From IMG/VR virus record IMGVR_UViG_3300022752_000001, positions 1 to 64,000 of that record: a DNA stretch of 64,000 bases; one strand, 5' to 3'. This DNA comes from a virus. Numbering within the stretch: the stretch's first letter is position 1; every line of letters begins with the position of its first letter. Positions 15,725 through 42,784 of this stretch are shown here, piece by piece. Under the pieces are notes generated by a model. The model made no database searches and was not told the origin of the DNA. It saw only the letters and a list, made by a program, of their open reading frames with translations. The position numbers and the translations under genes are program-made.

Positions 15725-16502
15725 TTATGCGTTGACCCGCTCCCTAACAAGAACGCATTTATACCAACCCGTCACCGGGTGGATTGGACTATATCTTGGC
15801 GTCGTTAGACGCCCCGCTTGTTCGTGCTGGTTATTAAGGCTTCCTAAGCCTCCAGTAGTCTCTACACCTTACATGCAAGCGTGCATGTCTTGGCTCGGTA
15901 TTGTCTTGGGGATCTCCCAAGAGTTCCACCGAATTAAAGCAGTATGGGCCTAATCTGAAAAAGAACTACTCAAAAATAGCATATCTACAACAAACACCAA
16001 TGCTATTTCCGTAAGAGATTACCCTACGTCTACCAGTATTTGGGGATCCTGGGACTCGGCTCAATACAAATTTGTCCCAAGAAACCCATACTTTAATGAG
16101 CTTATTGATTGGTAGACCTCCAGAATGGTAGGAGTTAAGAAAAGAGTATAAGTTTGGGGATACAGACTGCCAGAACGAATACCTAGGGTTGCTAGAGTCA
16201 GCATATGTCGGAGAACCATATAGAAAATTTTCTTTCCAACTATACTTATTGATGCTTGGGTAATACCGATATGTTGGTGTACTGCCCGAAGGCTTTACAA
16301 ATTCAAAACCAGTAGCTCCGCAATTTTCAATAAACGGACCAGAACCAACACCAGTGTAGAATGTACCAGTTCGCAGTTCAGAAGGAGCTTGCCTAAGATG
16401 AGATATGTTACCAGTTCTAAATGGAGTAGTGTCTCCATGAAATGTAGCAACCTCGTAAATCGTAGGAGCTTTACGGATCTGTAATGGGAGGATGGTGGGC
16501 AT
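15725..16502 (-). CDS. Head fibre/decoration protein, split by a group I intron
   Basis: Exon 1 runs 16502-16021 and exon 2 15755-15725. Joined, they give 170 residues ending ...TGRRRV-VLVRERVNA, a natural basic beta strand, then TAA. Without splicing, translation reads through intron sequence and stops at 15966 after 178 residues. The body (MPTILPLQIRKAPTIYEVAT... 'VWVSWDKFVLSRVPGSPNTG') is beta-rich with no known family. It lies between a fibre-like gene and the coat gene, suggesting a virion surface protein. The splice junction is predicted, not tested. Confidence 0.7.
15756..16020 (-). ncRNA. Group I self-splicing intron
   Basis: All core elements can be paired on the minus strand. P1: GGGU|AAUC (exon end 16021) with GAUU-AG-GCCC (15955-15946), with the U.G wobble at the splice site. 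P3: CTGCTT (15942-15937) with AAGCGG (15819-15814). P4: CGGT/ACCG; P5: CTTGGG/CCCAAG. P6a: ACATGCA/TGCATGT. P7: GAGACTA with AGATATAGTC. P7.1/7.2: CTGG/CCAG around AGGCTT/AAGCCT (group IA feature). P8: GGCGTC/GACGCC. P9: CCCG-GTGA-CGGG. Terminal G at 15756 in ATAAATG, like the T4 td intron end. About 265 nt and no homing endonuclease inside; a nine-base hairpin (AAATAGCAT/ATGCTATTT) fills the P1 loop. Confidence 0.85.
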
Positions 16503-22837: not shown

Positions 22838-22865
22838 ATTCTGTCTACTGTCAGTTAAAAGTCAA
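22838..22865 (-). promoter_or_regulatory. Promoter for portal operon
   Basis: TTGACT at 22865-22860 (overlapping the terminase stop), GACAGTA at 22852-22846, 16-base spacer, CAGAAT at 22843-22838. Same spacing as the coat, 37.2-kb, 38.1-kb and 55.4-kb motifs. Confidence 0.55.
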
Positions 22866-24577
22866 TAATTTAACACAGGGTCTTTGTTGGTGTCGATCAC
22901 ACGATCCAGCCGGCGAGCTTGCTCTTGCCAACCCCCGCTTTTCCTAGCCATCACGGTTCCTCCGGCCATTGCGCCGACTCGTACTCGAATACACTCCAAC
23001 CCAACAAAGGCTGCGTCCGCCAAATCGGGGCTCTTTCCTACCCGCGACTTGTAATCTCTCTTGGATTCTACGACCAGCTTACCCCCGGCCATCGTGGTGT
23101 ATTTCCTGCTGGTTAGTTCTCTAGCCAGCTCAGGAGTCACGCCCTTCAGCTGGCCTGACCGCATAAACTCAACGCCACCGAACCAAAGCTCGGTGACCTT
23201 GTTGCCGTATTTGTCCTTGGCCTCGACCATCGAGCTTGAGCTGATTGGCATAGTGCTAGGCTTTTCTCCAAACTTCACCCGCAGGATTCGTGGAGACCAC
23301 GTCTCGGAGATAATATCGCAAAGCGGATCTCCTGCGCCGGTGGCGTCGACCGCCAGATATTCCGGGGGCACGCCTTGCTTTTGACATTCGGCCATAACTT
23401 GACGAGCCACCTGAAAGTTTCTGGGCTGCGGATCGTTTACGTTCTCTCTGATGATAGTGAAATCTTTAAAGTTCACAGTAGGTCCAGCTTCCTCAGTCCG
23501 TCCGTACTCCAAGAAATACAGCACCGTTCTGTCTCCGCCGTTGGTAAACGAAGGATCAAGTCCAGCAACTACCTTGGGCGGCTCAATCCACTTGGGGGCT
23601 TTATCCACCTCAAACTTGCGGAAGTCTGCTTCCGAGTAAATAGACTCCTCGGCTCCACCAGGAGCTGGGAAGGAACGGATGAATCGCCAAAAAGAAATAC
23701 TGTGCTCGCCGTCGTGGTCTTCGGCGTGCCGTAGCTGTTTTGTTGTAAGCAGGAACGGCCAAGCGTCGTCATGTTCAAGGTTGGGCGTCTTGGCTCCGTC
23801 CAAGTGAAGGCATAAACCCAGCTTGGTCTTCCACTCCTCCTGATCTACCGTGACCGAGTTCCACCCGCCGACAGGGGTGGCAAACATACCAAACGGGTCG
23901 TACTGGCTGGAAAAGTTACCCAGGGCTATGCACTGGAACGTAGGGTTAGCGTTTAGATTGGAGATAGCTTCAAAGACCGAGTTGGTCACGTCGGTGGCCT
24001 CGTCGATGATAAGGAACACCCTCTGGTTCTTAAGACCGATAAGTTTGGCCGTGGCCTCCTTCTCTTTGTCAGGGCTAGACGGCACCAGGGTTATGGACGA
24101 TCGGTCGCTGGACTCTCCTTCCGTCAAAATGATCTTACCCATGGAGTCGATCAATTTTCCCGGAAAGCCTGGAACCTGCAAAAATCGCTCACGAATGCCT
24201 CCCCAAAGGCGTTTGCGGGCTTCCCGGATAGATGTGCTGGTAACCAGAACAAGCGTCTCGTGAGGAGCACACAACCAATTTACAAGCCCCCACATGGCGA
24301 AGGTGGCAGTCTTGCCACTGGACTTGGGGCCAGAGATAGCCAGGTAGTCCTGCTCGCAAGCCGCTTGGATCATACGCTCTGCCCAGGGATGCCAACAGAA
24401 CCCGGCTTTGTTTCGCGTCTTGTGATACGGCCAAAGAAGCTCTACAATGTTCTTGAAATGCTGAAACTTGCCCAAACCCCCCGTTTCGGGGGTCAGCCCA
24501 AGCTTGAAAGCCATAAGCTCAATTTCGAGTTTTCCGGCCCCATCTGGCCATACCTTTCCATACAAAGTCGTTGGCAT
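22862..24577 (-). CDS. terL: Large terminase subunit (TerL)
   Basis: 571 residues. The ATPase domain has Walker A GPKSSGKT (83-90) and Walker B 'VFLIIDEATDV'. The C-terminal nuclease domain has 'VVAGLDPSFTNGGDRTVLYF' (first catalytic Asp) and 'YLAVDATGAGDPLCDII' (second). It packages DNA through the portal encoded next. The start at 24577 follows a TTGACA and the first copy of a 21-base repeat that flanks attP. No small terminase lies beside it; an HTH protein at 41.3 kb is a candidate. Confidence 0.92.
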   Translation of the reverse strand: MPTTLYGKVWPDGAGKLEIELMAFKLGLTPETGGLGKFQHFKNIVELLWPYHKTRNKAGFCWHPWAERMIQAACEQDYLAISGPKSSGKTATFAMWGLVNWLCAPHETLVLVTSTSIREARKRLWGGIRERFLQVPGFPGKLIDSMGKIILTEGESSDRSSITLVPSSPDKEKEATAKLIGLKNQRVFLIIDEATDVTNSVFEAISNLNANPTFQCIALGNFSSQYDPFGMFATPVGGWNSVTVDQEEWKTKLGLCLHLDGAKTPNLEHDDAWPFLLTTKQLRHAEDHDGEHSISFWRFIRSFPAPGGAEESIYSEADFRKFEVDKAPKWIEPPKVVAGLDPSFTNGGDRTVLYFLEYGRTEEAGPTVNFKDFTIIRENVNDPQPRNFQVARQVMAECQKQGVPPEYLAVDATGAGDPLCDIISETWSPRILRVKFGEKPSTMPISSSSMVEAKDKYGNKVTELWFGGVEFMRSGQLKGVTPELARELTSRKYTTMAGGKLVVESKRDYKSRVGKSPDLADAAFVGLECIRVRVGAMAGGTVMARKSGGWQEQARRLDRVIDTNKDPVLNY

Positions 24578-24830: not shown

Positions 24831-24851
24831 CAGACATTAATTGTCAGTAAT
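24831..24851. repeat. 21-base direct repeat, copy 2 (attP arm)
   Basis: Identical to 24578-24598. It overlaps the alternative upstream starts (TTG 24841, ATG 24850) of the integrase, which favours a downstream start and a regulatory or recombination role. A third, shorter TGTCAGTAA sits at 24720-24728 at the edge of the tRNA-derived core. Confidence 0.6.
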
Positions 24852-24864
24852 GTTTCGATTCAGC

Positions 24865-26091
24865 ATGAAAAAAGAATTTAAGCCGATCGAGATCCAAGAT
24901 GGATTCGCCAATGTTAAAATATATCAGTGCGTCAACAATAAGAATTATTTGACGTACATGGTTACGTGGTGGGCCGAGGGGAAAAGACAACGTCGAGCAA
25001 TTGCAGAACTTACCGAAGCAAAGCGCGAGGCTCGTAGAATTGCCAGAGACTTGGCTGACGGAAGAGCTTCGATGGTCGCCGTGTCAAATAAAGAGCTGAT
25101 TTATTTTAGGGACCTAGAAAAAAAGATGGGCGGTACTCCCCTGAGTGAGGCAGTCAACCTGTGGTTGAGAACCAGTGATAACAAACTACCAAAGATCACG
25201 GTTAGTGAAATTTTGAAGGAAATGCTCAACATCAAGCTGAACGATACCTTTATTGAAAAGCGGCAGAAACAAACTCTCCAGGTTCGTTGGGGTAAGTTTG
25301 AGAGGGTTTTTGGTGGCCGAGTTATCTCAACAATCAAGGCCAAGGAATTGGATTCATTCTTGGCCAACCCGGAATGGCAGCCAAGAACTCGACAGCACTA
25401 CCGCGGAGCCATCAGCATGATTTTTGATTACGCCAAGAGGAAGGACTACTTGGAACCAGATAAGGATCACCAAGCTGAAAAGACTGAAAGTATCCGGGTT
25501 AATGACGCTAAATTGGAAAGTTGGTCCGTCGAGGACATGCGTCTAATTTTAAAACACGCCCCAAAAAGGATTATTCCATGGGTTGTTTTGGGTGCTTTTG
25601 CGGGGGTGAGATCGTCCGAAATAGAGAGAATGAACTGGGAAGACCTCGACTGGTCTAGCAATTTGATTTTAATTAAAGGAAAGCTTGTAGGTGGTTCTAA
25701 ATCAAGAGCTAACAACGATAGAACTATTGCAATGACCGACAACCTAAAAGCTTGGCTTAGCCCTTTTAGGCTATATAAAGGAAATATACTTAAAAGTCTT
25801 GGATCAGGTGAAATTAATAAAGACCTGTATGCTTGGCTTGAAGATTTAATTCACAAAATACAAAAGGAAAAACCGCTTTTTACTTGGAAACAAAACGCAA
25901 ATCGTCACAGCTTTGCTACCTACTACTTAGCTATGACAGGAGATGCTTCAACAACTGCACTGGCGATGGGCAATAGCCCGACAATGGTGCTGCGTAGGTA
26001 CAAGACCATCCAGGTGGATGGGAAAACAGTGACCCGGACTATGGCGGAGAGGTACTTCGCAATTCTGCCGGGTCAAGGAGGAACAAATTAA
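24865..26091 (+). CDS. int: Tyrosine integrase
   Basis: 408 residues from ATG 24865 (ATG 24850 is possible). N-terminal arm-binding and core-binding domains precede the catalytic domain: first Arg in 'AGVRSSEIERMNWEDLDW' (about 249), 'NANRHSFATYYLAMTG' (about 344) and nucleophile Tyr in 'MVLRRYKTI' (about 379). The usual HxxR is NxxR and the later His/Trp (GH/GW) is GN (MGNSP). Such substitutions occur in active integrases, often from Verrucomicrobiota in my memory. It lies beside attP and catalyses integration at tRNA-Thr. Confidence 0.9.
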   Translation: MKKEFKPIEIQDGFANVKIYQCVNNKNYLTYMVTWWAEGKRQRRAIAELTEAKREARRIARDLADGRASMVAVSNKELIYFRDLEKKMGGTPLSEAVNLWLRTSDNKLPKITVSEILKEMLNIKLNDTFIEKRQKQTLQVRWGKFERVFGGRVISTIKAKELDSFLANPEWQPRTRQHYRGAISMIFDYAKRKDYLEPDKDHQAEKTESIRVNDAKLESWSVEDMRLILKHAPKRIIPWVVLGAFAGVRSSEIERMNWEDLDWSSNLILIKGKLVGGSKSRANNDRTIAMTDNLKAWLSPFRLYKGNILKSLGSGEINKDLYAWLEDLIHKIQKEKPLFTWKQNANRHSFATYYLAMTGDASTTALAMGNSPTMVLRRYKTIQVDGKTVTRTMAERYFAILPGQGGTN

Positions 26092-31565: not shown

Positions 31566-31798
31566 GCGTAGACGTAAGAGTACGCATTTCAGCGGTCGAG
31601 GGTGAACTCAAGTTTGAAGTTCACACCGATCACATGGATGCACAACCGGTCGAAAAGACGGTGGCTGAGGAGCTCAAGGGCCTCACCTGCCGGCTGCTTG
31701 ACCTATATCTCGAAACCCTCAAGGAACCCAAAGAAGAAATCCAAGCCGAATGCGAAACATTGCCATCGATTTCGAATCCTACTACGACAACGAGCTGA
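31562..31798 (+). CDS. Small unknown protein overlapping DNA polymerase start
   Basis: 78 residues (MSVDVRVRISAVEGELKFEV ...). Starts in an ATGA overlap with AAAGGAAA upstream. Its last 49 bases overlap the polymerase gene in another frame, so it probably couples polymerase translation. Beta strand plus helix pattern; no family recognised. Confidence 0.6.
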   Translation: MSVDVRVRISAVEGELKFEVHTDHMDAQPVEKTVAEELKGLTCRLLDLYLETLKEPKEEIQAECETLPSISNPTTTTS

Positions 31799-33510
31799 GC
31801 ATTAAGACGCTCGGCCAGTGGCACTACCTACGCGATCCGCGCGGGGAGATCTACATGGTGTCGATGGTTGGTGACGGTATTGAGCCGTATTGCGGTCCCG
31901 TGGACAAGGCTCCCTGGGACAAGATCGACGGCTGCCGGTGGATTGCGCACAACTACAGCTTTGACGGAGCCTGTGTTGAGGCTCTTGGCGACCGAATCAA
32001 GTCGAAGCCTGCGGATTTCTTCTGCACGGCCAATCTTGCGGCCTACCTGGGCTCTCCAAGGGATCTGGAGGGTGCCTGTTCTAACCTCCTTGGTAAGGAG
32101 ATTTCGAAGGACCCGCGCAAAAAGATGAAGGGTAAGAAGTGGTCTAGTATAGCCAATACTGAGTTTGCGGAGGAGATGACGCAATACGCTTTAGCGGATT
32201 CTGTGAGCTGTTTGGAGCTCTACAAGAAGTACGCATCGGAGATGCCGGAGATTGAGCGCAAGTTATCCAAGCACACGATTGAAATGGCGTGGAAGGGTTT
32301 TGCGATTGATCAGCCTCTGGTTAAAGAAGGCATCAAGAAGCTCGATAAAATCAAGTGGGAGGCTGAACAGAAGCTCCCCTGGATGGACAAAGGAGACGGC
32401 GTTGTTCTTTCCATCAAGAATTTTAGGGCTGAGTGCATCAACCAAGGCATCCCCTGGCCTGATTCTCTTTCAGAAGATTCGGAAGAGTGTGCGGTGTGGG
32501 AAAAGAAATACGGCGACAAGGTTCCTTTTGTTGCCGCCATGCGGGATTGGAGAAAATGCAATTCCTACTTGGTTAAGATGAAGGTGCTTGATTCTCGTGT
32601 GCGCCCAGATATGACAGCGTCTTACGGCATGAAGTTCTTTGGGGCGCATACAGGTCGGTTTAGTGGGGATAGCCGCTTTAACGTTCAGAATCTGCCCAGA
32701 GAGCCCCATTTTGGGGTCGATATGCGAGGCTGCATTATCCCTCGTCCAGGCAAGAAGTTCATTGTTTGCGACCTTTCTCAGATTGAACCCAGGGTTCTGG
32801 CCTGGCTTTCCGGGAATACAGCTCTTCTGGAAGCCGTTCGTAACGGGTACGGCATCTACGAAGCCTTTGCCATCTCTGCCAATTTATGGCGGGGGGATAA
32901 AGGAACACTTAAGAAAACCAATACAGCCATGTACCAACTTGCCAAGGCAATGGTGCTGGGTCTTGGGTATGGCGCAGGCGCCAAGAAATTCGCCTACATG
33001 GCCAACACATCATACGGCCTGGAAGTGGACGAAGCAGAGGCGGCAAACATTGTAAGAACATACCGCTCTAAAAATCATCACGTCGTCAATTTTTGGAAGA
33101 AGTTGGAGACGGCCTTCAAACAGTCCAAAGCAGACGGACAATACGAGATCGAGCTCCCCTCTTGGCGCTCCCTCAAATACCGCAACATTCGCACGCAAAA
33201 CCTCGCAAGTGGATACGCAGGATACACAGCTCAGACCATCATGGGTGGTCCTCACGTCAATTTCTACGGTGGGAACTTATGCAATAACACCGTTCAGGCT
33301 ACAGCCCGGGATGTCATGGCCGAATGCATCCTCCGACTCGAAAAGGCTGGCCTACCCCTTGTCCTTCATGTTCACGACGAAGCCGTTGTGGAGGTCGACA
33401 AGGATGTGAAACCAAAAGATGTGGAAATGTTGATGTCGGTAACCCCGGACTGGTTACAAGGCTGCCCGGTCGCAGCCGAGGCCGTGGAAACCGACAGATA
33501 CGTTAAATAG
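31750..33510 (+). CDS. polA: Family A DNA polymerase with 3'-5' exonuclease domain
   Basis: 586 residues. The N-terminal exonuclease begins 'NIAIDFESYYD' (Asp-Glu pair) with later 'WIAHNYSFDG'. Polymerase motif A is 'CDLSQIEPRVLAWLSG' (about 340), motif B 'KAMVLGLGYGAGAKKF' and motif C 'HVHDEAVVEV' (about 540). The DLSQIEPRV form is usual in phage polymerases that accompany DUF2800 and SNF2 genes. It replicates the phage genome. Starts inside the previous gene. Confidence 0.92.
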   Translation: MRNIAIDFESYYDNELSIKTLGQWHYLRDPRGEIYMVSMVGDGIEPYCGPVDKAPWDKIDGCRWIAHNYSFDGACVEALGDRIKSKPADFFCTANLAAYLGSPRDLEGACSNLLGKEISKDPRKKMKGKKWSSIANTEFAEEMTQYALADSVSCLELYKKYASEMPEIERKLSKHTIEMAWKGFAIDQPLVKEGIKKLDKIKWEAEQKLPWMDKGDGVVLSIKNFRAECINQGIPWPDSLSEDSEECAVWEKKYGDKVPFVAAMRDWRKCNSYLVKMKVLDSRVRPDMTASYGMKFFGAHTGRFSGDSRFNVQNLPREPHFGVDMRGCIIPRPGKKFIVCDLSQIEPRVLAWLSGNTALLEAVRNGYGIYEAFAISANLWRGDKGTLKKTNTAMYQLAKAMVLGLGYGAGAKKFAYMANTSYGLEVDEAEAANIVRTYRSKNHHVVNFWKKLETAFKQSKADGQYEIELPSWRSLKYRNIRTQNLASGYAGYTAQTIMGGPHVNFYGGNLCNNTVQATARDVMAECILRLEKAGLPLVLHVHDEAVVEVDKDVKPKDVEMLMSVTPDWLQGCPVAAEAVETDRYVK

Positions 33511-33702: not shown

Positions 33703-35820
33703 ATGAGTCTTTACGCCCTGAAGAACCTGGCTTGCCTGGAGGTCGCTCCAGTCGACGCCTGGCTTCACACAACCCCACTACCCAACATGACCAAGGAGGA
33801 GTTTTCCTCCTGGTCTACCAACCCCTCGACGGATTGGCTGTTTGTGTCCGGTTTTGAGGGTCGTGCGCCCAACCTCCGGGTCTCCCGCGAGAACCAGGCA
33901 GTCAAGATGCACGCCCTTGTGGCGGACTACGACGCTCAGATCACGGCCGAGGAAATGCTTGAGGGTCTTACCCGTCGCTCGAAAGCCGGCATGAAGCCCG
34001 CCTACGCCCATCGCACCATCAGCGGTGGAGTACGGGTTATCTGGCTGTTTGAGAAACCCGTAGCCATTGCGCCCGGGATATTTGATCCCTTCATCACTCG
34101 TCTGATGAAGGAGCTCAATGTCCGCAAGCTGTTCCCTGGACTGGATGACAACATCCGCAAGCCAGAACAGTACTACGCTTGGAATCCTCCAGCCACCGAG
34201 GTCAGTGATAACCGAGTTAAGTTTGATACCCTCTGTGCCCTCCTGGCTTCAGCCTTTGATGCTTCTCACCGCTATCGTGGTGAAGGAGATACCGAGATTC
34301 CCATTGAGAAGATCAAGGAACGGGTGGAAAGCCTGTTTCCTGGTCGACTTCGTGGAACGCTAGATATTAACGGGCGTTGTAACGCTTTTTGGTCTCCGGA
34401 TTCTACCAATCCGTCAGCTTGTATTGTTACGGCAACCGGGATGGTTTCATTCTCGCAAGATCGGGCGTTCTATCCTTGGGCAGATATCTTGGGTGCGGAT
34501 TGGGTCGATGAATTTAACAACACTCGTCTGGGCGGGCCTCTGGGTTCGTACTGGTACGACGGAAGTAAGTATTGGCGCAGGGATATGGAAGGCAGCTGGA
34601 GAGACGCACCTTCGGAGACAGCCCGCAAGGACATTGCAGGCTTGTTTGGTTTAAGTCTCACCAGCGATGCCCGCGGAGATATGTCGGAGACCGACGAAGC
34701 CATGCTTCGCATTCGGGAAAACCGTCGTGTCGATGCCACCGGCCCTGTGCTCTACAGCCATGAGGAAATCGTGCGATTTGGCAGCCGATGCATCCTCAAC
34801 ACCTCCAGGGTAAAAGTGATGCCGCCCAGCAACACTCCTGGAGAGTGGGGCGAGCACTTCCCTTGGACGGCGAGTCTGTTGGACGAGTTCTTTGATCCGT
34901 CTGACAGTCTCCAGTACTTCCTGGCCTGGCTGAAACGGTTCTACACCACAGCCAGCGCCGGGGCCCCCGCCCAAGGTCAGGCCGTGTTTATCGCCGGTCC
35001 GGTCGAGCAAGGGAAAACCTTGATCGGTACCAAGATTGTCGCCGCTCTTATGGGCGGAGGTTGCGATGCCTCCTCCCATATAAGTGGCGGGGATCAGTTC
35101 AATAACGAGCTCTTCGAAGTCGGCGTGCTCAACATTGACGATACCGTCGCTTCGACCAGCTACGAGAAACACCTTCTCTTCACCAACTCGATCAAGAAGT
35201 TCGTCGCCAACACTCAGCACCGCCACCGTGCGATGCGCGAGAACCCAACGACGATCAACTGGATTGGGCGGATCATCTTTACGCTGAATGATGACCCCGA
35301 ATCGATGCGGGCGATCCCCTACACCGACACCTCCATCCTGGACAAGATCATGCTCTTCAAAGCGAGGCACCGGAAGTTCCCCTTCCCTCCTCGCCAGGAG
35401 ATTGATCGGATCTTGGCCAGGGAGCTGCCCAACTTTGCCCGATGGCTTCTGGATTGGAATCCGCCGGCGCACCTGGAAGGCACCAACCGGTTCGGTGTAG
35501 CGAACTACCATCACCCCGACATTTTGGAAGATACGAGAACAACCCACCCTAACCACGCTTTCTCCGAGCTCCTCGATAAGTACCTCATAAATTACAAAAT
35601 CGCGGCGAACGGGAAAAACCCAAAACAGTGGGTTGGTTCAGCGACCGACCTACTCAACAACATGCTTAATGATGCCGAACTCGAAAAGCTCGCACGTCAT
35701 TACGTTTCAAGTCCGGACCGCATGGGTCAGAGATTGGCCAAGATTATGGCCATCCGGCCCGAGCAGGTTATCCGGCGCAAATCAGGAGGAAAAATCACAT
35801 GGGAAATCAATCTGGAATAA
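33703..35820 (+). CDS. Primase-helicase (AEP-like primase + SF3 helicase)
   Basis: 705 residues. The N-terminal part has 'HALVADYDAQI' (D-x-D, about 69) and 'AHRTISGGVRVIWLF', the DxD and (S)-x-H-like motifs of archaeo-eukaryotic primases. The C-terminal part has Walker A 'GPVEQGKTLIG' (about 431), Walker B 'VGVLNIDDTVA' (about 475) and 'IGRIIFTLNDDPESMRAIP', as in superfamily 3 helicases of phage primase-helicases. It unwinds and primes the replication fork. Upstream of an overlapping 2OG oxygenase gene. Confidence 0.85.
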   Translation: MSLYALKNLACLEVAPVDAWLHTTPLPNMTKEEFSSWSTNPSTDWLFVSGFEGRAPNLRVSRENQAVKMHALVADYDAQITAEEMLEGLTRRSKAGMKPAYAHRTISGGVRVIWLFEKPVAIAPGIFDPFITRLMKELNVRKLFPGLDDNIRKPEQYYAWNPPATEVSDNRVKFDTLCALLASAFDASHRYRGEGDTEIPIEKIKERVESLFPGRLRGTLDINGRCNAFWSPDSTNPSACIVTATGMVSFSQDRAFYPWADILGADWVDEFNNTRLGGPLGSYWYDGSKYWRRDMEGSWRDAPSETARKDIAGLFGLSLTSDARGDMSETDEAMLRIRENRRVDATGPVLYSHEEIVRFGSRCILNTSRVKVMPPSNTPGEWGEHFPWTASLLDEFFDPSDSLQYFLAWLKRFYTTASAGAPAQGQAVFIAGPVEQGKTLIGTKIVAALMGGGCDASSHISGGDQFNNELFEVGVLNIDDTVASTSYEKHLLFTNSIKKFVANTQHRHRAMRENPTTINWIGRIIFTLNDDPESMRAIPYTDTSILDKIMLFKARHRKFPFPPRQEIDRILARELPNFARWLLDWNPPAHLEGTNRFGVANYHHPDILEDTRTTHPNHAFSELLDKYLINYKIAANGKNPKQWVGSATDLLNNMLNDAELEKLARHYVSSPDRMGQRLAKIMAIRPEQVIRRKSGGKITWEINLE

Positions 35821-38565: not shown

Positions 38566-38862
38566 ATGCCACTGGGCAAAAAAGCTTCTATGCCCTGCAA
38601 CAGCCCGAGGCCAAGCACACGGCCAGGCAAGAAACGGATGGTCAAAGCTTGTGAGGGTGGCAAGGAGAAGCTGGTTTACTTTGGGGCTAAGGGGTACGGA
38701 AACAACTACTCGGCGGCAGCCCGCAAATCATTTAGAGCACGGCATAACTGCGACAACCCGGGGAGCAAGCTAGGTGCCCGTTACTGGGCGTGTAAGAACC
38801 TTTGGGCTGGCCCAGGCGGAGCAACTACTCCCAACCCTAAAGGCCGGCAAGGTAAGTACTAA
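38566..38862 (+). CDS. Conserved basic phage protein
   Basis: 98 residues. 'PGKKRMVKACEGGKEKLVYF', 'GAKGYGNNYSAAARKSFRAR', then 'KLGARYWACKNLW' with four Cys (ACEGG, HNCDN, WACK and the N-terminal MPCN). I recall near-identical small proteins in aquatic phages, without function. Follows the DUF5856-like gene by four bases. Confidence 0.7.
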   Translation: MPLGKKASMPCNSPRPSTRPGKKRMVKACEGGKEKLVYFGAKGYGNNYSAAARKSFRARHNCDNPGSKLGARYWACKNLWAGPGGATTPNPKGRQGKY

Positions 38863-38913
38863 ATATATCCCTTTGGGGGTATATGTCCCTTTAGGGATAA
38901 ATATTTCAATTTA

Positions 38914-39189
38914 GGGTAACATAAGTTACCCCAAAATACAGGTTACCAGGGCAAGTTACCCCAAAATAACCGCTGTACTTCAATCAGTTACGGCAAAAAG
39001 GGTAACTGGGTAACTTGTTTTTCGACTTTGGGGTTCCCAAGCCCGGCACACACAGCGCAAATATTTCACGCCAGATTATATAGATTAATATATTATAGTT
39101 ACCCTAGTTACCCTAGTTACCCTAAATATTATAACCACAAATACTTAAAATGGGTAACTTTGAAATTTTTGGGGTAACTTAGGTTACCC
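38914..39189. repeat. Iteron-like GGGTAAC cluster, candidate replication origin
   Basis: Noncoding stretch (38863-39188) with eleven exact copies of GGGTAAC/GTTACCC and one near copy in 276 bases: 38914, 38925, 38942 (near), 38955, 39000, 39008, 39098, 39107, 39116, 39152, 39172 and 39183. Both orientations occur. 38914-38931 is a palindrome with a four-base gap, and 39098-39122 is a nine-base-period triple. An A/T-only-rich block (39073-39097, ATTATATAGATTAATA) lies between copies. Iterons plus a melting region suggest an origin, or a repressor/partition site. Confidence 0.65.
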
Positions 39190-39290
39190 TAAAGCCGCTT
39201 TACCCCGTCATGGGCAGTCCTCTTGGCTAGGACCCAGATAACCGCTGTCGCAGCCAGAAAAATAAGCTTACCTAGGATTTGCCGTATCAT
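39189..39290 (-). CDS. Possible small membrane protein
   Basis: 33 residues (MIRQILGKLIFLAATAVIWV ...), one hydrophobic segment and a basic tail. Starts within the preceding small minus-strand frame. No ribosome binding site stands out, so it may not be real. Confidence 0.3.
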   Translation of the reverse strand: MIRQILGKLIFLAATAVIWVLAKRTAHDGVKRL

Positions 39291-39396
39291 TGGCTCGGCT
39301 TTGGTAAAGCGCCCACTTTGTAATCTTGGCTATCAGCCTTTTGCTGTTCACCGGCCTTTGCGTAACCGCGACCTTTGGTTTAGGGGTCTTAGCCAC
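39268..39396 (-). CDS. Possible small basic protein
   Basis: 42 residues from GTG 39396 (MAKTPKPKVAVTQRPVNSKR ...), overlapping the end of the Cys-containing gene upstream. Basic and Pro-rich at its start. Coupling by overlap is the only support. Confidence 0.3.
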   Translation of the reverse strand: MAKTPKPKVAVTQRPVNSKRLIAKITKWALYQSRANDTANPR

Positions 39397-39715
39397 GACG
39401 AGGCATCCTACTGTTCAACCAGGCTCTTCGTTTGGCACACGCTTTACAGGTGCTTAAACGACTCCCAAACACCGAATCCAGGGCTTTCGCGACAGGCAAG
39501 GCAAGAACATGCACCAGATCCCCCAGGCCCTTTGATTCGCAGAACCCCGGGTCCTTGGCACAGCTCTGTCGAATGATCTCCTTCCGGTACAGTTCCCTTG
39601 CTTGATACTCCCATGGGTCCTGCCCCTTGGATGAGAGAATCTGAGTTATTAGATCGTCCAGGTTTTCGTGGATCCTCTTGACCGGCCCTTCCTCGTATGT
39701 CCATATGAATTTCAT
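39389..39715 (-). CDS. Small protein with CxxC motif
   Basis: 108 residues. N-terminal 'MKFIWTYEEGPVKRIHENLD', a helical middle and a C-terminal 'STCKACAKRRAWLNSRMP', a CxxC-plus-basic ending often seen in small phage proteins. It diverges from 39741 on the plus strand; the 25 bases between hold TTGACA. Function unknown. Confidence 0.6.
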   Translation of the reverse strand: MKFIWTYEEGPVKRIHENLDDLITQILSSKGQDPWEYQARELYRKEIIRQSCAKDPGFCESKGLGDLVHVLALPVAKALDSVFGSRLSTCKACAKRRAWLNSRMPRRG

Positions 39716-41253: not shown

Positions 41254-41715
41254 CTACACAGTGATAACTGGATTACTGGCAGTTACTGACACCGAATCTT
41301 GTGGAAGTTGTTGTAAAACCGCAATGTTCACTGTTTGGGTTTTCGAGCCTTCCGACAAGCCAAAAGCTGTCGTTGCCACACGATTCACCTTTTCCAACGC
41401 AGTGAAATGTTCTTCAACTTCACTACGGGTAGCTGGGGCTTCTGCCTCCAGCGCATTCATCCCGCCCTCAACCTGTTTCTTTAACCTTACTAGATATGAT
41501 TGGGCTTCACCCACCATTTCATTCGTTGCAACACGATGCGCTTCTGCCACTCGTTGCAGAGATTGCTGCTTGTAAGTTGCAAGTTTGAAGCGCGCAACGT
41601 GACTGCGTATCGACGCAGCATTCACGTTGAATCTAGTAGCTAATATCTGAGGTGGAATACCTTTCGCGTATTCCGCTTCAATCGGGCCCCAATCAATCAC
41701 TGAACGCTTTCTCAT
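41254..41715 (-). CDS. HTH protein, candidate small terminase or regulator
   Basis: 153 residues. N-terminal HTH 'IEAEYAKGIPPQILATRFNV' with recognition helix 'NAASIRSHVARFKLA', then a long helical region ('RVAEAHRVATNEMVGEAQSY') and a short C-terminal beta segment (KTQTVNIAVLQQL). This layout is common in phage TerS-like proteins, and no TerS lies near terL. Two CGTTGCAACG-type palindromes just upstream suggest it may bind its own promoter region, as either a regulator or a pac-site binder. Confidence 0.55.
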   Translation of the reverse strand: MRKRSVIDWGPIEAEYAKGIPPQILATRFNVNAASIRSHVARFKLATYKQQSLQRVAEAHRVATNEMVGEAQSYLVRLKKQVEGGMNALEAEAPATRSEVEEHFTALEKVNRVATTAFGLSEGSKTQTVNIAVLQQLPQDSVSVTASNPVITV

Positions 41716-41718
41716 GCT

Positions 41719-41748
41719 GTTGCAACGATTGTACCAGACGTTGCAACG
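41719..41748. promoter_or_regulatory. Paired palindromic operator
   Basis: GTTGCAACG at 41719-41727 and the perfect palindrome CGTTGCAACG at 41739-41748; centres are about 20 bases (two helical turns) apart. They sit four bases upstream of the HTH gene's start and between it and the divergent operon. Likely sites for a dimeric or tetrameric HTH protein. Confidence 0.55.
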
Positions 41749-41832
41749 CTATGCAAGTTACTGACAGACATCAGTCATCTTCAACCACGATCGATAAACC
41801 ACAACCCATAACCCATAACCAAGGAGACAACC

Positions 41833-42099
41833 ATGAAAGCAACTTACAAGAACAGCAACAGCTGGTCCCAGATCGACAAGAAATGGCACGAGGACAGGAA
41901 CGAGCGGATCATGATCACAATGCTCTGCCCTTACGCCGTAGGACAGATCATCACTCAGGATAACGGCACCCAGGAGATCGTCAGCCACATCTCCAAAGTC
42001 GACGATGAGTTCATCGTTCAGACCAAGGTCTTGGCTGGTCTCAGCGGCTACTACAAGGTGCAGGCCGACGGCTCCTTGAAGAACGGGCTGAGCCGATGA
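41833..42099 (+). CDS. Unknown protein, first gene of the early accessory operon
   Basis: 88 residues (MKATYKNSNSWSQIDKKWHE ...). Strong AAGGAG upstream. The middle 'VGQIITQDNGTQEIVSHISK' looks like a small beta barrel. Unknown function. Confidence 0.65.
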   Translation: MKATYKNSNSWSQIDKKWHEDRNERIMITMLCPYAVGQIITQDNGTQEIVSHISKVDDEFIVQTKVLAGLSGYYKVQADGSLKNGLSR

Positions 42100-42224
42100 A
42101 CCAGTACGCAGTTGTTTATAACGGCCACGTGCAACGGGAGTTCAAGCGTCGTGAAGATGCTTGGGACTACCTGGTGCAACGTGGCTGGCGTTGGTCTGAC
42201 GAAGCCTACATCGCAACCTTTTAA
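42096..42224 (+). CDS. Small unknown protein
   Basis: 42 residues (MNQYAVVYNGHVQREFKRRE ... EAYIATF). ATGA overlap. A hydrophobic start and basic middle; no family recognised. Followed by a stem-loop. Confidence 0.6.
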   Translation: MNQYAVVYNGHVQREFKRREDAWDYLVQRGWRWSDEAYIATF

Positions 42225-42234
42225 TTGAATTTCC

Positions 42235-42264
42235 TGCAACGCGGTACTTTGCCTCCGCGTTGCA
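42235..42264 (+). terminator. Stem-loop inside early operon
   Basis: TGCAACGCGG / CCGCGTTGCA, perfect ten-base stem, ten-base loop. It contains the TGCAAC/GTTGCA half-sites also found at 41719-41748, so it may be an attenuator or another binding site. Confidence 0.4.
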
Positions 42265-42297
42265 TCCTGACGGTAAGGCAAAACAAGAGGTACATAT

Positions 42298-42462
42298 ATG
42301 CGTAACATGATCCCAATCGACCATGTCGAAGTGGAAGAATACACAAACCAATCAACCCTTGATGCCGTGAGCAGCGAGTACGTTGCAATGCGGCACCCCA
42401 TGCTCGAGATGGACGAAGCGTCCATGCGGGCTGAGTGCGTCCGGAGGTTCATCAATGATTAA
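42298..42462 (+). CDS. Small acidic protein
   Basis: 54 residues (MRNMIPIDHVEVEEYTNQST ... AECVRRFIND), AAGAGG upstream. Acidic and helical. Overlaps the next gene's start. Unknown function. Confidence 0.6.
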   Translation: MRNMIPIDHVEVEEYTNQSTLDAVSSEYVAMRHPMLEMDEASMRAECVRRFIND

Positions 42463-42784
42463 CCTAACCGAACAACTCGAAGCGATCCGGCCTAGCTTGA
42501 ACCTCAAGCCCAGCCCGGTGCAACCGACGGCCAAAGTTCCGGTACCGGCACAGGTCTTCCGTATCCCTGCCAAGGTGATGCGAGACGGCGTGGCTTGGTC
42601 ACCGACCTATTGGTACAACCCCAAAAGCAACCACGATCGGCAGCGTGCGATGAGCGAGCTGCGGTCTGCGTTGCAGTATGGCACCAGCTTGGAAGGCGCA
42701 AGCGCTTCCCGTTGGGGCGTACAGATCGGAGACAAAACCTTCACCGTCAACCCGGTTGGGCTGACCGAGTGGATCAATAGTTAA
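42455..42784 (+). CDS. Unknown protein
   Basis: 109 residues (MINLTEQLEAIRPSLNLKPS ...). The ATG at 42455 has GGAGG nine bases upstream, inside the preceding gene. Later 'VAWSPTYWYNPKSNHDRQRA' and 'WGVQIGDKTFTVNP'. No family recognised. Confidence 0.65.
   Translation: MINLTEQLEAIRPSLNLKPSPVQPTAKVPVPAQVFRIPAKVMRDGVAWSPTYWYNPKSNHDRQRAMSELRSALQYGTSLEGASASRWGVQIGDKTFTVNPVGLTEWINS

What the first reader, a model, noticed from the sequence alone, without database searches (positions are those of the whole stretch)
38863..39189. Cluster of eleven GGGTAAC repeats with an A/T block: candidate origin
The only sizeable noncoding region lacking a structured RNA holds twelve close copies in both orientations, a nearly perfect palindrome and a triple tandem, with an A/T melting block. 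No phage initiator is obvious; the AEP/SF3 protein could act without one.
Basis: partly seen in the sequence, partly recalled or inferred. Interest (0 to 1): 0.65.

Follow-up and report, generated by a model that had tools for sequence, protein, structure and literature searches.

The report
Replication start site of uncultivated phages
The repeat cluster is very probably the place where this phage starts copying its DNA: distant relatives keep the same layout of repeats beside the copying genes but have changed the repeat word, as expected if each phage's own starter protein reads its own word.

Summary
In detail: 11 exact GGGTAAC copies (5 +, 6 -) lie in 38914-39189; no 7-mer exceeded 4 copies per 276 bp in 100 shuffles. 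The A/T block inside is the weakest 30-bp and 80-bp duplex of the window. Best explanation: a replication origin whose short repeats (iterons) are read by the phage's own primase/SF3-helicase, encoded 3.1 kb upstream beside a family A polymerase. Of 29 clades of this protein tested, 15 carry a mixed-orientation repeat cluster downstream of it that beats all 40 shuffles; the repeat word differs between clades while order and spacing persist (window + - - ++ [AT] --- ++ -; a relative 46% identical in the protein + - - +++ [AT] --- ++ -). The protein models as a D5-type helicase (NrS-1, SaPI5 PriRep1) with a C-terminal winged helix. Published satellite (PICI) origins share this plan: two iteron sets flanking an AT-rich region, 3' of the initiator gene. 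Here it serves ~70-kb phages with their own terminase. attP and ParABS readings are disfavoured. Against: GC skew gives no support, eight of 23 clades with at least 8 kb downstream show no cluster, and binding and initiation are inferred, not shown.

The parts
33703..35820 (+). Prim-SF3 protein (705 aa): N-terminal AEP-type primase domain, SF3/D5-type helicase, C-terminal winged helix (about 642-703); proposed initiator that reads the iterons
   Evidence: AlphaFold2 pLDDT 88 with 31 sequences; fold matches to NrS-1 CTR and SaPI5 PriRep1; D75, D77, G437, K438, D479, D480, N529 invariant in 31 sequences; the motif roles of those residues are recalled
31750..33510 (+). family A DNA polymerase with 3'-5' exonuclease, upstream of Prim-SF3
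   Evidence: phrog_17 E 2.1e-91; DNA_pol_A E 8.8e-27
38869..38896 (.). two CCCTTTNGGG-type short hairpins at the left edge (38869-38878, 38887-38896)
   Evidence: terminator role is a guess
38914..38931 (.). left outer palindromic iteron pair GGGTAAC-N4-GTTACCC (+ -)
38942..38948 (-). degenerate iteron GTTACCA
   Evidence: read
38955..38961 (-). single iteron
39000..39014 (+). left tandem array, two iterons 8 bp apart, pointing to the A/T block
39026..39041 (.). G+C-rich imperfect hairpin between left array and A/T block
   Evidence: weak
39072..39101 (.). A/T block: weakest 30-bp duplex of the 64-kb window, proposed unwinding site
39098..39122 (-). right tandem array, three iterons with 9-bp period, pointing back to the A/T block
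39152..39158 (+). single iteron
39172..39189 (.). right outer palindromic iteron pair (+ -), inverted counterpart of 38914-38931
38566..38862 (+). left flanking gene (98 aa, weak DUF5754), points towards the cluster
39389..39715 (-). right flanking gene (108 aa), points towards the cluster, so the cluster lies between convergent genes
   Evidence: matched in one other clade

Best explanation
The cluster is the phage's origin of replication. The Prim-SF3 protein made 3 kb upstream binds the 7-bp iterons, probably through its C-terminal winged helix. Two tandem arrays pointing at each other (++ at 39000-39014 and --- at 39098-39122) load two head-to-head hexamers on either side of the A/T block, which is melted; the primase domain then lays primers and the phage's own family A polymerase extends them. 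The outer palindromic pairs would stabilise or regulate the complex. Shown here: the cluster, its conservation, its conserved layout with lineage-specific words, its constant position downstream of Prim-SF3, the predicted fold, the weak duplex. Inferred: binding, hexamer loading, melting, initiation and the mode of replication.
For: Cluster unique and far beyond chance. Present in 7 of 10 loci of its clade, the other three ending within 2.2 kb of the gene; the 77% relative L028 has 8 exact copies. In L028 iteron bases are kept more than spacers (60/77 v 103/199, Fisher p 7e-5), and in the six close sequences 75/77 v 173/199 columns are invariant. Of 29 clades tested, 15 have a mixed-orientation downstream cluster beating 40 of 40 shuffles, each with its own or a related word; L080 (0/40, one orientation by exact match) and L060 (11/40, weak) look alike by eye. 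All 11 strong mixed-orientation clusters (log10 p <= -11) lie downstream, none upstream. Same orientation order in L059 and, without the left tandem array, in L062; similar in L077. Word similarity follows Prim-SF3 similarity (Mantel r 0.36-0.37 for the three domains, p <= 0.0006, 17 clades). L059 and L052 have polymerases 93% identical but Prim-SF3 76% identical and different words. No DnaB-type helicase in 6 of 6 records. D5-type fold with C-terminal winged helix. A/T block weakest duplex. Relatives of this fold read downstream iterons through the C-terminal domain (PMC7581432, passages and section 6), and PICI origins have two iteron sets flanking an AT-rich region (PMC6092414, passages).
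Against: No replication data. GC skew: the detrended cumulative maximum lies near the cluster in G000 and G006, 3.2 kb off in G016, elsewhere in G012, G015 and G008, and a maximum is opposite to the usual bacterial sign. Eight of 23 clades with at least 8 kb downstream (L031, L054, L058, L068, L070, L071, L073, L082) have no acceptable cluster. Winged-helix similarity does not explain word similarity beyond the rest of the protein (partial Mantel p 0.12), and over 17 close pairs its relative conservation is not correlated with word similarity (rho -0.11), so the reading domain is not shown. Polymerase similarity runs largely parallel to Prim-SF3 similarity.
Confidence: 0.86

Rival explanations
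1. Operator/regulatory cluster: a phage repressor or activator binds the repeats to control neighbouring promoters.
For: Inverted and tandem short repeats are common in operators (recalled). In L061 and L062 a same-direction gene starts directly after or within the cluster.
Against: In the window the cluster lies between convergent genes, so there is no obvious promoter to control; 10 of 19 gene maps show a + gene left and a - gene right (maps are noisy). Two weak promoter-like sites lie in it or at its edge, 3 found against 1.7 expected in the region. The word is not enriched elsewhere in the genome. The position follows Prim-SF3 while neighbouring genes change.
Confidence: 0.06
2. attP site with arm-type repeats for the tyrosine integrase at 24841-26091.
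For: The window phage encodes a tyrosine integrase; attP regions carry clustered arm sites (recalled). A tRNA-Tyr gene lies beside the cluster in L019 and L041.
Against: The integrase gene is 13 kb away. PF00589 was found in 3 of 11 records searched: in none of the 7 GGGTGG-clade records, which carry the same kind of cluster, nor in G016. G016 may lack it because its contig ends near that place.
Confidence: 0.03
3. Partition (centromere) site of a phage-plasmid.
For: Iteron-like centromeres exist (recalled).
Against: No ParB_N or AAA_31 (ParA-type) match in 6 of 6 records; other partition types were not searched. A central A/T block and a link to Prim-SF3 are not expected.
Confidence: 0.02
4. 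Replication terminus or fork barrier rather than origin.
For: The cluster lies at a convergent gene junction, and in G000 and G006 near the detrended cumulative GC-skew maximum.
Against: That skew pattern is absent in G012, G015 and G008. An initiator-like protein beside it and an easily melted core fit initiation.
Confidence: 0.03

Closest known systems
PICI/SaPI replication origins with Pri-Rep (SaPIbov1, SaPI5, EcCICFT073)
   Same: [quoted passage not shown] initiator fold: SaPI5 PriRep1 7ola Z 16.6, rmsd 6.6, 361 residues.
   Different: Carried by ~70-kb phages with their own terminase and polymerase, not by satellites; origin displaced by up to 7.5 kb from the gene; outer palindromic pairs; repeat words differ by lineage.
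SCCmec Cch2 and its AAGTG iterons
   Same: D5-type helicase whose isolated C-terminal domain binds iterons downstream of its gene (PMC7581432, section 6 and passages); AAGTG resembles words such as AAGTGGAT in L049.
   Different: Three iterons only, separate primase-polymerase, integrated cassette.
NrS-1 phage polymerase (PrimPol-helicase)
   Same: Best fold match of the helicase and C-terminal part, 6k9c_A Z 22.3, rmsd 5.5, 366 residues.
   Different: 13% identity; the NrS-1 paper reports two copies of an 8-nt recognition sequence mid-genome, not an iteron cluster (PMC7102993, passages).
pRN1-type plasmid origin
   Same: Essential noncoding region just downstream of a prim-SF3 gene; conserved in structure but not in sequence (PMC4234260, passages).
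   Different: A 100-nt stem-loop; the authors found no iterons.
Phage P4 alpha/ori-crr
   Same: Single primase-helicase-initiator protein with short iterons (recalled).
   Different: Satellite; different words; no comparison run here.

Membership tests
[quoted passage not shown]
   Left ++ and right --- arrays around the A/T block in the window; the same in L059 and L077
PICI-type iteron origin | lies 3' of the initiator (pri-rep) gene | tested here: met
   All accepted clusters lie downstream, +22 to +7510 bp; not always immediately adjacent
PICI-type iteron origin | initiator of Pri-Rep type with C-terminal DNA-binding domain | tested here: met
   Fold match to PriRep1 and a C-terminal winged helix; prediction only, DNA binding not shown
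PICI-type iteron origin | initiator binds the iterons | not testable with these tools
   needs a protein-DNA binding assay
PICI-type iteron origin | initiator plus origin sustain plasmid replication | not testable with these tools
   needs a plasmid assay
PICI (the element) | satellite without its own full virion gene set | tested here: not met
   terminase large subunit at 22862-24577, polymerase and RIIA/RIIB, 72-kb record
attP of a tyrosine integrase | cognate integrase in the same element | tested here: not met
   PF00589 absent from 7 of 7 GGGTGG-clade records that carry the same kind of cluster
ParABS partition site | ParA/ParB genes | tested here: inconclusive
   PF02195 and PF13614: 0 of 6 records each; other types not searched

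The most novel reading that the evidence does not exclude
A large family of uncultivated phages, at least some of Verrucomicrobiota, uses satellite-style origins in which the layout is fixed but the repeat word is rewritten lineage by lineage together with Prim-SF3, giving a set of mutually incompatible (orthogonal) initiator-origin pairs; PICI origins and these phage origins would then descend from one ancestral module.
Probability: 0.5. Interest if true: 0.72.

Novelty: new variant of a known kind. Interest (0 to 1): 0.6.

Why it matters
[quoted passage not shown] Here it appears in ~70-kb phages with no relative of their Prim-SF3 in a collection of 50,697 phage records. The 17 clades supply natural initiator-iteron pairs at 29 to 86% protein identity (pairs listed), so how a D5-type initiator reads and changes its origin word becomes directly testable by swaps, and the cluster predicts where replication starts in phages nobody has grown.

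Tried and rejected
GC skew as an origin marker: no consistent signal in six records. Winged-helix/word co-variation: the overall Mantel correlation is significant, but partial Mantel and a block test over 17 close pairs (block 1-100 gave rho 0.59, p 0.014, uncorrected, probably chance) do not single out the winged helix. A relaxed one-mismatch scan found no convincing cluster in the eight negative clades. Second 7-mer cluster TGCAACG 42130-42387: inside an open frame, word not enriched window-wide. attP, ParABS, operator and terminus readings: see rivals. Four strong upstream clusters (L033, L069, L070, L073) are single-orientation repeats inside long frames and were dropped. L054, L058, L068, L070 and L071 also have downstream clusters beating 40 of 40 shuffles that I dropped because they lie mostly or wholly in frames of 90 to 397 aa (L054 and L071 are mixed in orientation, L058 partly). 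Some accepted clusters (L041, L061, L062, L078, L020) also overlap short frames of 87-121 aa, which I judged spurious without a test. L036, a fragment holding 88 residues of Prim-SF3, was left out of the clades. Solved-structure search by sequence: no match. Literature: 0 papers on iterons with Verrucomicrobia and phage; listings showed none on this family; this is a limited library.

Full report
WHAT IS THERE. The window is bases 1-64000 of a 72,269-base IMG/VR virus record. GGGTAAC occurs 17 times, 11 of them in 38914-39189. Shuffled windows never gave more than 4 copies of any 7-mer in 276 bp (100 shuffles). The order of the exact copies is + - - ++ [A/T block] --- + + -. The outermost pairs are near palindromes and mirror each other: arms 38910-38936 and 39167-39193 are 96% complementary; folded as one DNA strand the region is much more stable than shuffles (z -6.3). 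The A/T block starting at 39072 is the weakest 30-bp and 80-bp duplex of the whole window. The cluster lies between two genes pointing at it, 38566-38862 (+) and 39389-39715 (-). Upstream are a family A polymerase (31750-33510) and Prim-SF3 (33703-35820).

CLOSE RELATIVES. A search of viral contigs with Prim-SF3 gave 27 loci. In the clade of the window (at least 90% identity, 10 loci including the window) 7 carry the cluster, one of them cut by its contig end; the other three stop 1.3-2.1 kb after the gene. The distance from gene to cluster varies from 2.3 to 7.5 kb, so genes come and go between them while the cluster stays. In the 77% relative L028 the iteron bases are kept better (60/77) than spacers (103/199; p 7e-5), and among the six close sequences 75/77 iteron columns against 173/199 spacer columns are invariant.

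DISTANT RELATIVES. An alignment search kept the best 80 of 212 matching stretches, 76 loci; the loci used fall into 33 clades at 90% identity. I tested the 29 clades with at least 2.3 kb downstream for the strongest k-mer cluster against 40 dinucleotide shuffles each and checked orientation and reading frames. Fifteen have a mixed-orientation downstream cluster that no shuffle reached: window AGTTACCC, L028 GGGTAAC, L020 AGGGTGGG, L041 ATACCCCC, L044 ATCCACC, L049 AAGTGGAT, L059 AACCCACT, L052 AATACACT, L061 AGTGTCCC, L062 TGACACT, L066 AGTGGG, L077 TACCCCAC, L076 CAGGGG, L078 CATCACCA, L084 TCTCCACC. L080 (0 of 40 shuffles, exact copies in one orientation) and L060 (11 of 40, weak) look alike and were added by eye. 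Of the 23 clades with at least 8 kb downstream, 15 are positive (L080 counted) and eight negative. All 11 strong mixed-orientation clusters (log10 p of -11 or lower) are downstream, none upstream; three weaker mixed ones lie upstream (L049, L076, L077).

LAYOUT. Position strings: window + - - ++ [AT] --- + + - at 0 11 41 86 94 | 184 193 202 238 258 269; L059 (46% identical Prim-SF3) + - - +++ [AT] --- + + - at 0 15 33 68 77 86 | 174 184 193 229 241 266; L062 + - - [AT] --- + + -. The word orientation in this table was chosen by me so that the array after the A/T block mostly reads '-', so the single sign is conventional; the order is not. L077 is similar; others are partial. Order and spacing thus outlive both the word and the spacer sequence.

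AlphaFold2 with 31 family members gives pLDDT 88; the C-terminus (about 642-703) has a strand, three helices and two strands, as in a winged helix. Best solved folds are the NrS-1 C-terminal region (Z 22.3, rmsd 5.5, 366 aligned) and SaPI5 PriRep1 (Z 16.6, rmsd 6.6, 361 aligned), then D5-type helicases; identity is 9-14%. No DnaB-type helicase was found in 6 of 6 records. Word similarity follows Prim-SF3 similarity over 17 clades (Mantel r 0.36-0.37, p 0.0006 or lower), but equally for primase, helicase and winged-helix parts. One pair separates genes: L059 and L052 have polymerases 93% identical, Prim-SF3 76%, winged helix 59%, and different words. This is one pair, and a formal test over 17 pairs did not tie the winged helix to the word.

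COMPARISON. In SaPIs and SCCmec the D5-type helicase binds short iterons downstream of its gene through its C-terminal domain; Cch2 needs AAGTG (PMC7581432, section 6 and passages). [quoted passage not shown]). pRN1 also has its origin downstream of a prim-SF3 gene, as a stem-loop conserved in structure but not sequence (PMC4234260, passages). The element here works like a PICI origin but the record is not a PICI: it has a terminase and RIIA/RIIB.

HOST AND RANGE. No isolate phage matched three divergent members in 50,697 records. In bacterial genome contigs 6 loci matched: three titled Verrucomicrobi-, one Phycisphaerales, two without a group. L093 (Verrucomicrobiaceae bacterium E54) has the module with word TACTGTCA (7 copies, +142 to +397). 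Whether that contig is an integrated prophage was not tested; the host of the window's phage itself is not known.

LIMITS. No replication, binding or expression data. GC skew is inconsistent. Eight well-covered clades show no cluster. Gene maps rest on cross-clade BLAST support and are noisy.

Noticed in passing
L044:14398-14575, L028:14552-14562; also L059, L078, L080, L020: An element TAAGTCGTTGA/TCAACGACTTA lies in or just beside the iteron cluster in several clades, inverted around the A/T block in the L044 clade; absent from the window's own cluster. Possible second binding site.
   Followed up: partly
38869-38896: Short CCCTTTNGGG hairpins edge the cluster; the CCCTTTNNGG pattern also occurs beside the clusters of several relatives, such as L014, L018, L020, L024, L027, L049, L059. 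7 in the window against 2.9 expected.
   Followed up: partly
15765-16002: Group I intron on the minus strand, Rfam RF00028, E 4.9e-12.
   Followed up: no
L019:14303-14386 and L041:14620-14702: tRNA-Tyr(gta) gene directly beside the iteron cluster in two phage contigs.
   Followed up: no
41524-42675: Loose cluster of CGTTGCA/TGCAACG (five copies at 42130-42387), overlapping an open frame; beats 40 shuffles locally but the word is not enriched window-wide.
   Followed up: partly
L033:640-1030: Twenty single-orientation copies of ATCTGACA inside a long frame: repetitive coding sequence.
   Followed up: no
24841-26091 (window) and related records: Tyrosine integrase present in GGGTAAC-clade phages and not found in GGGTGG-clade records: related phages may differ in lifestyle.
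   Followed up: no
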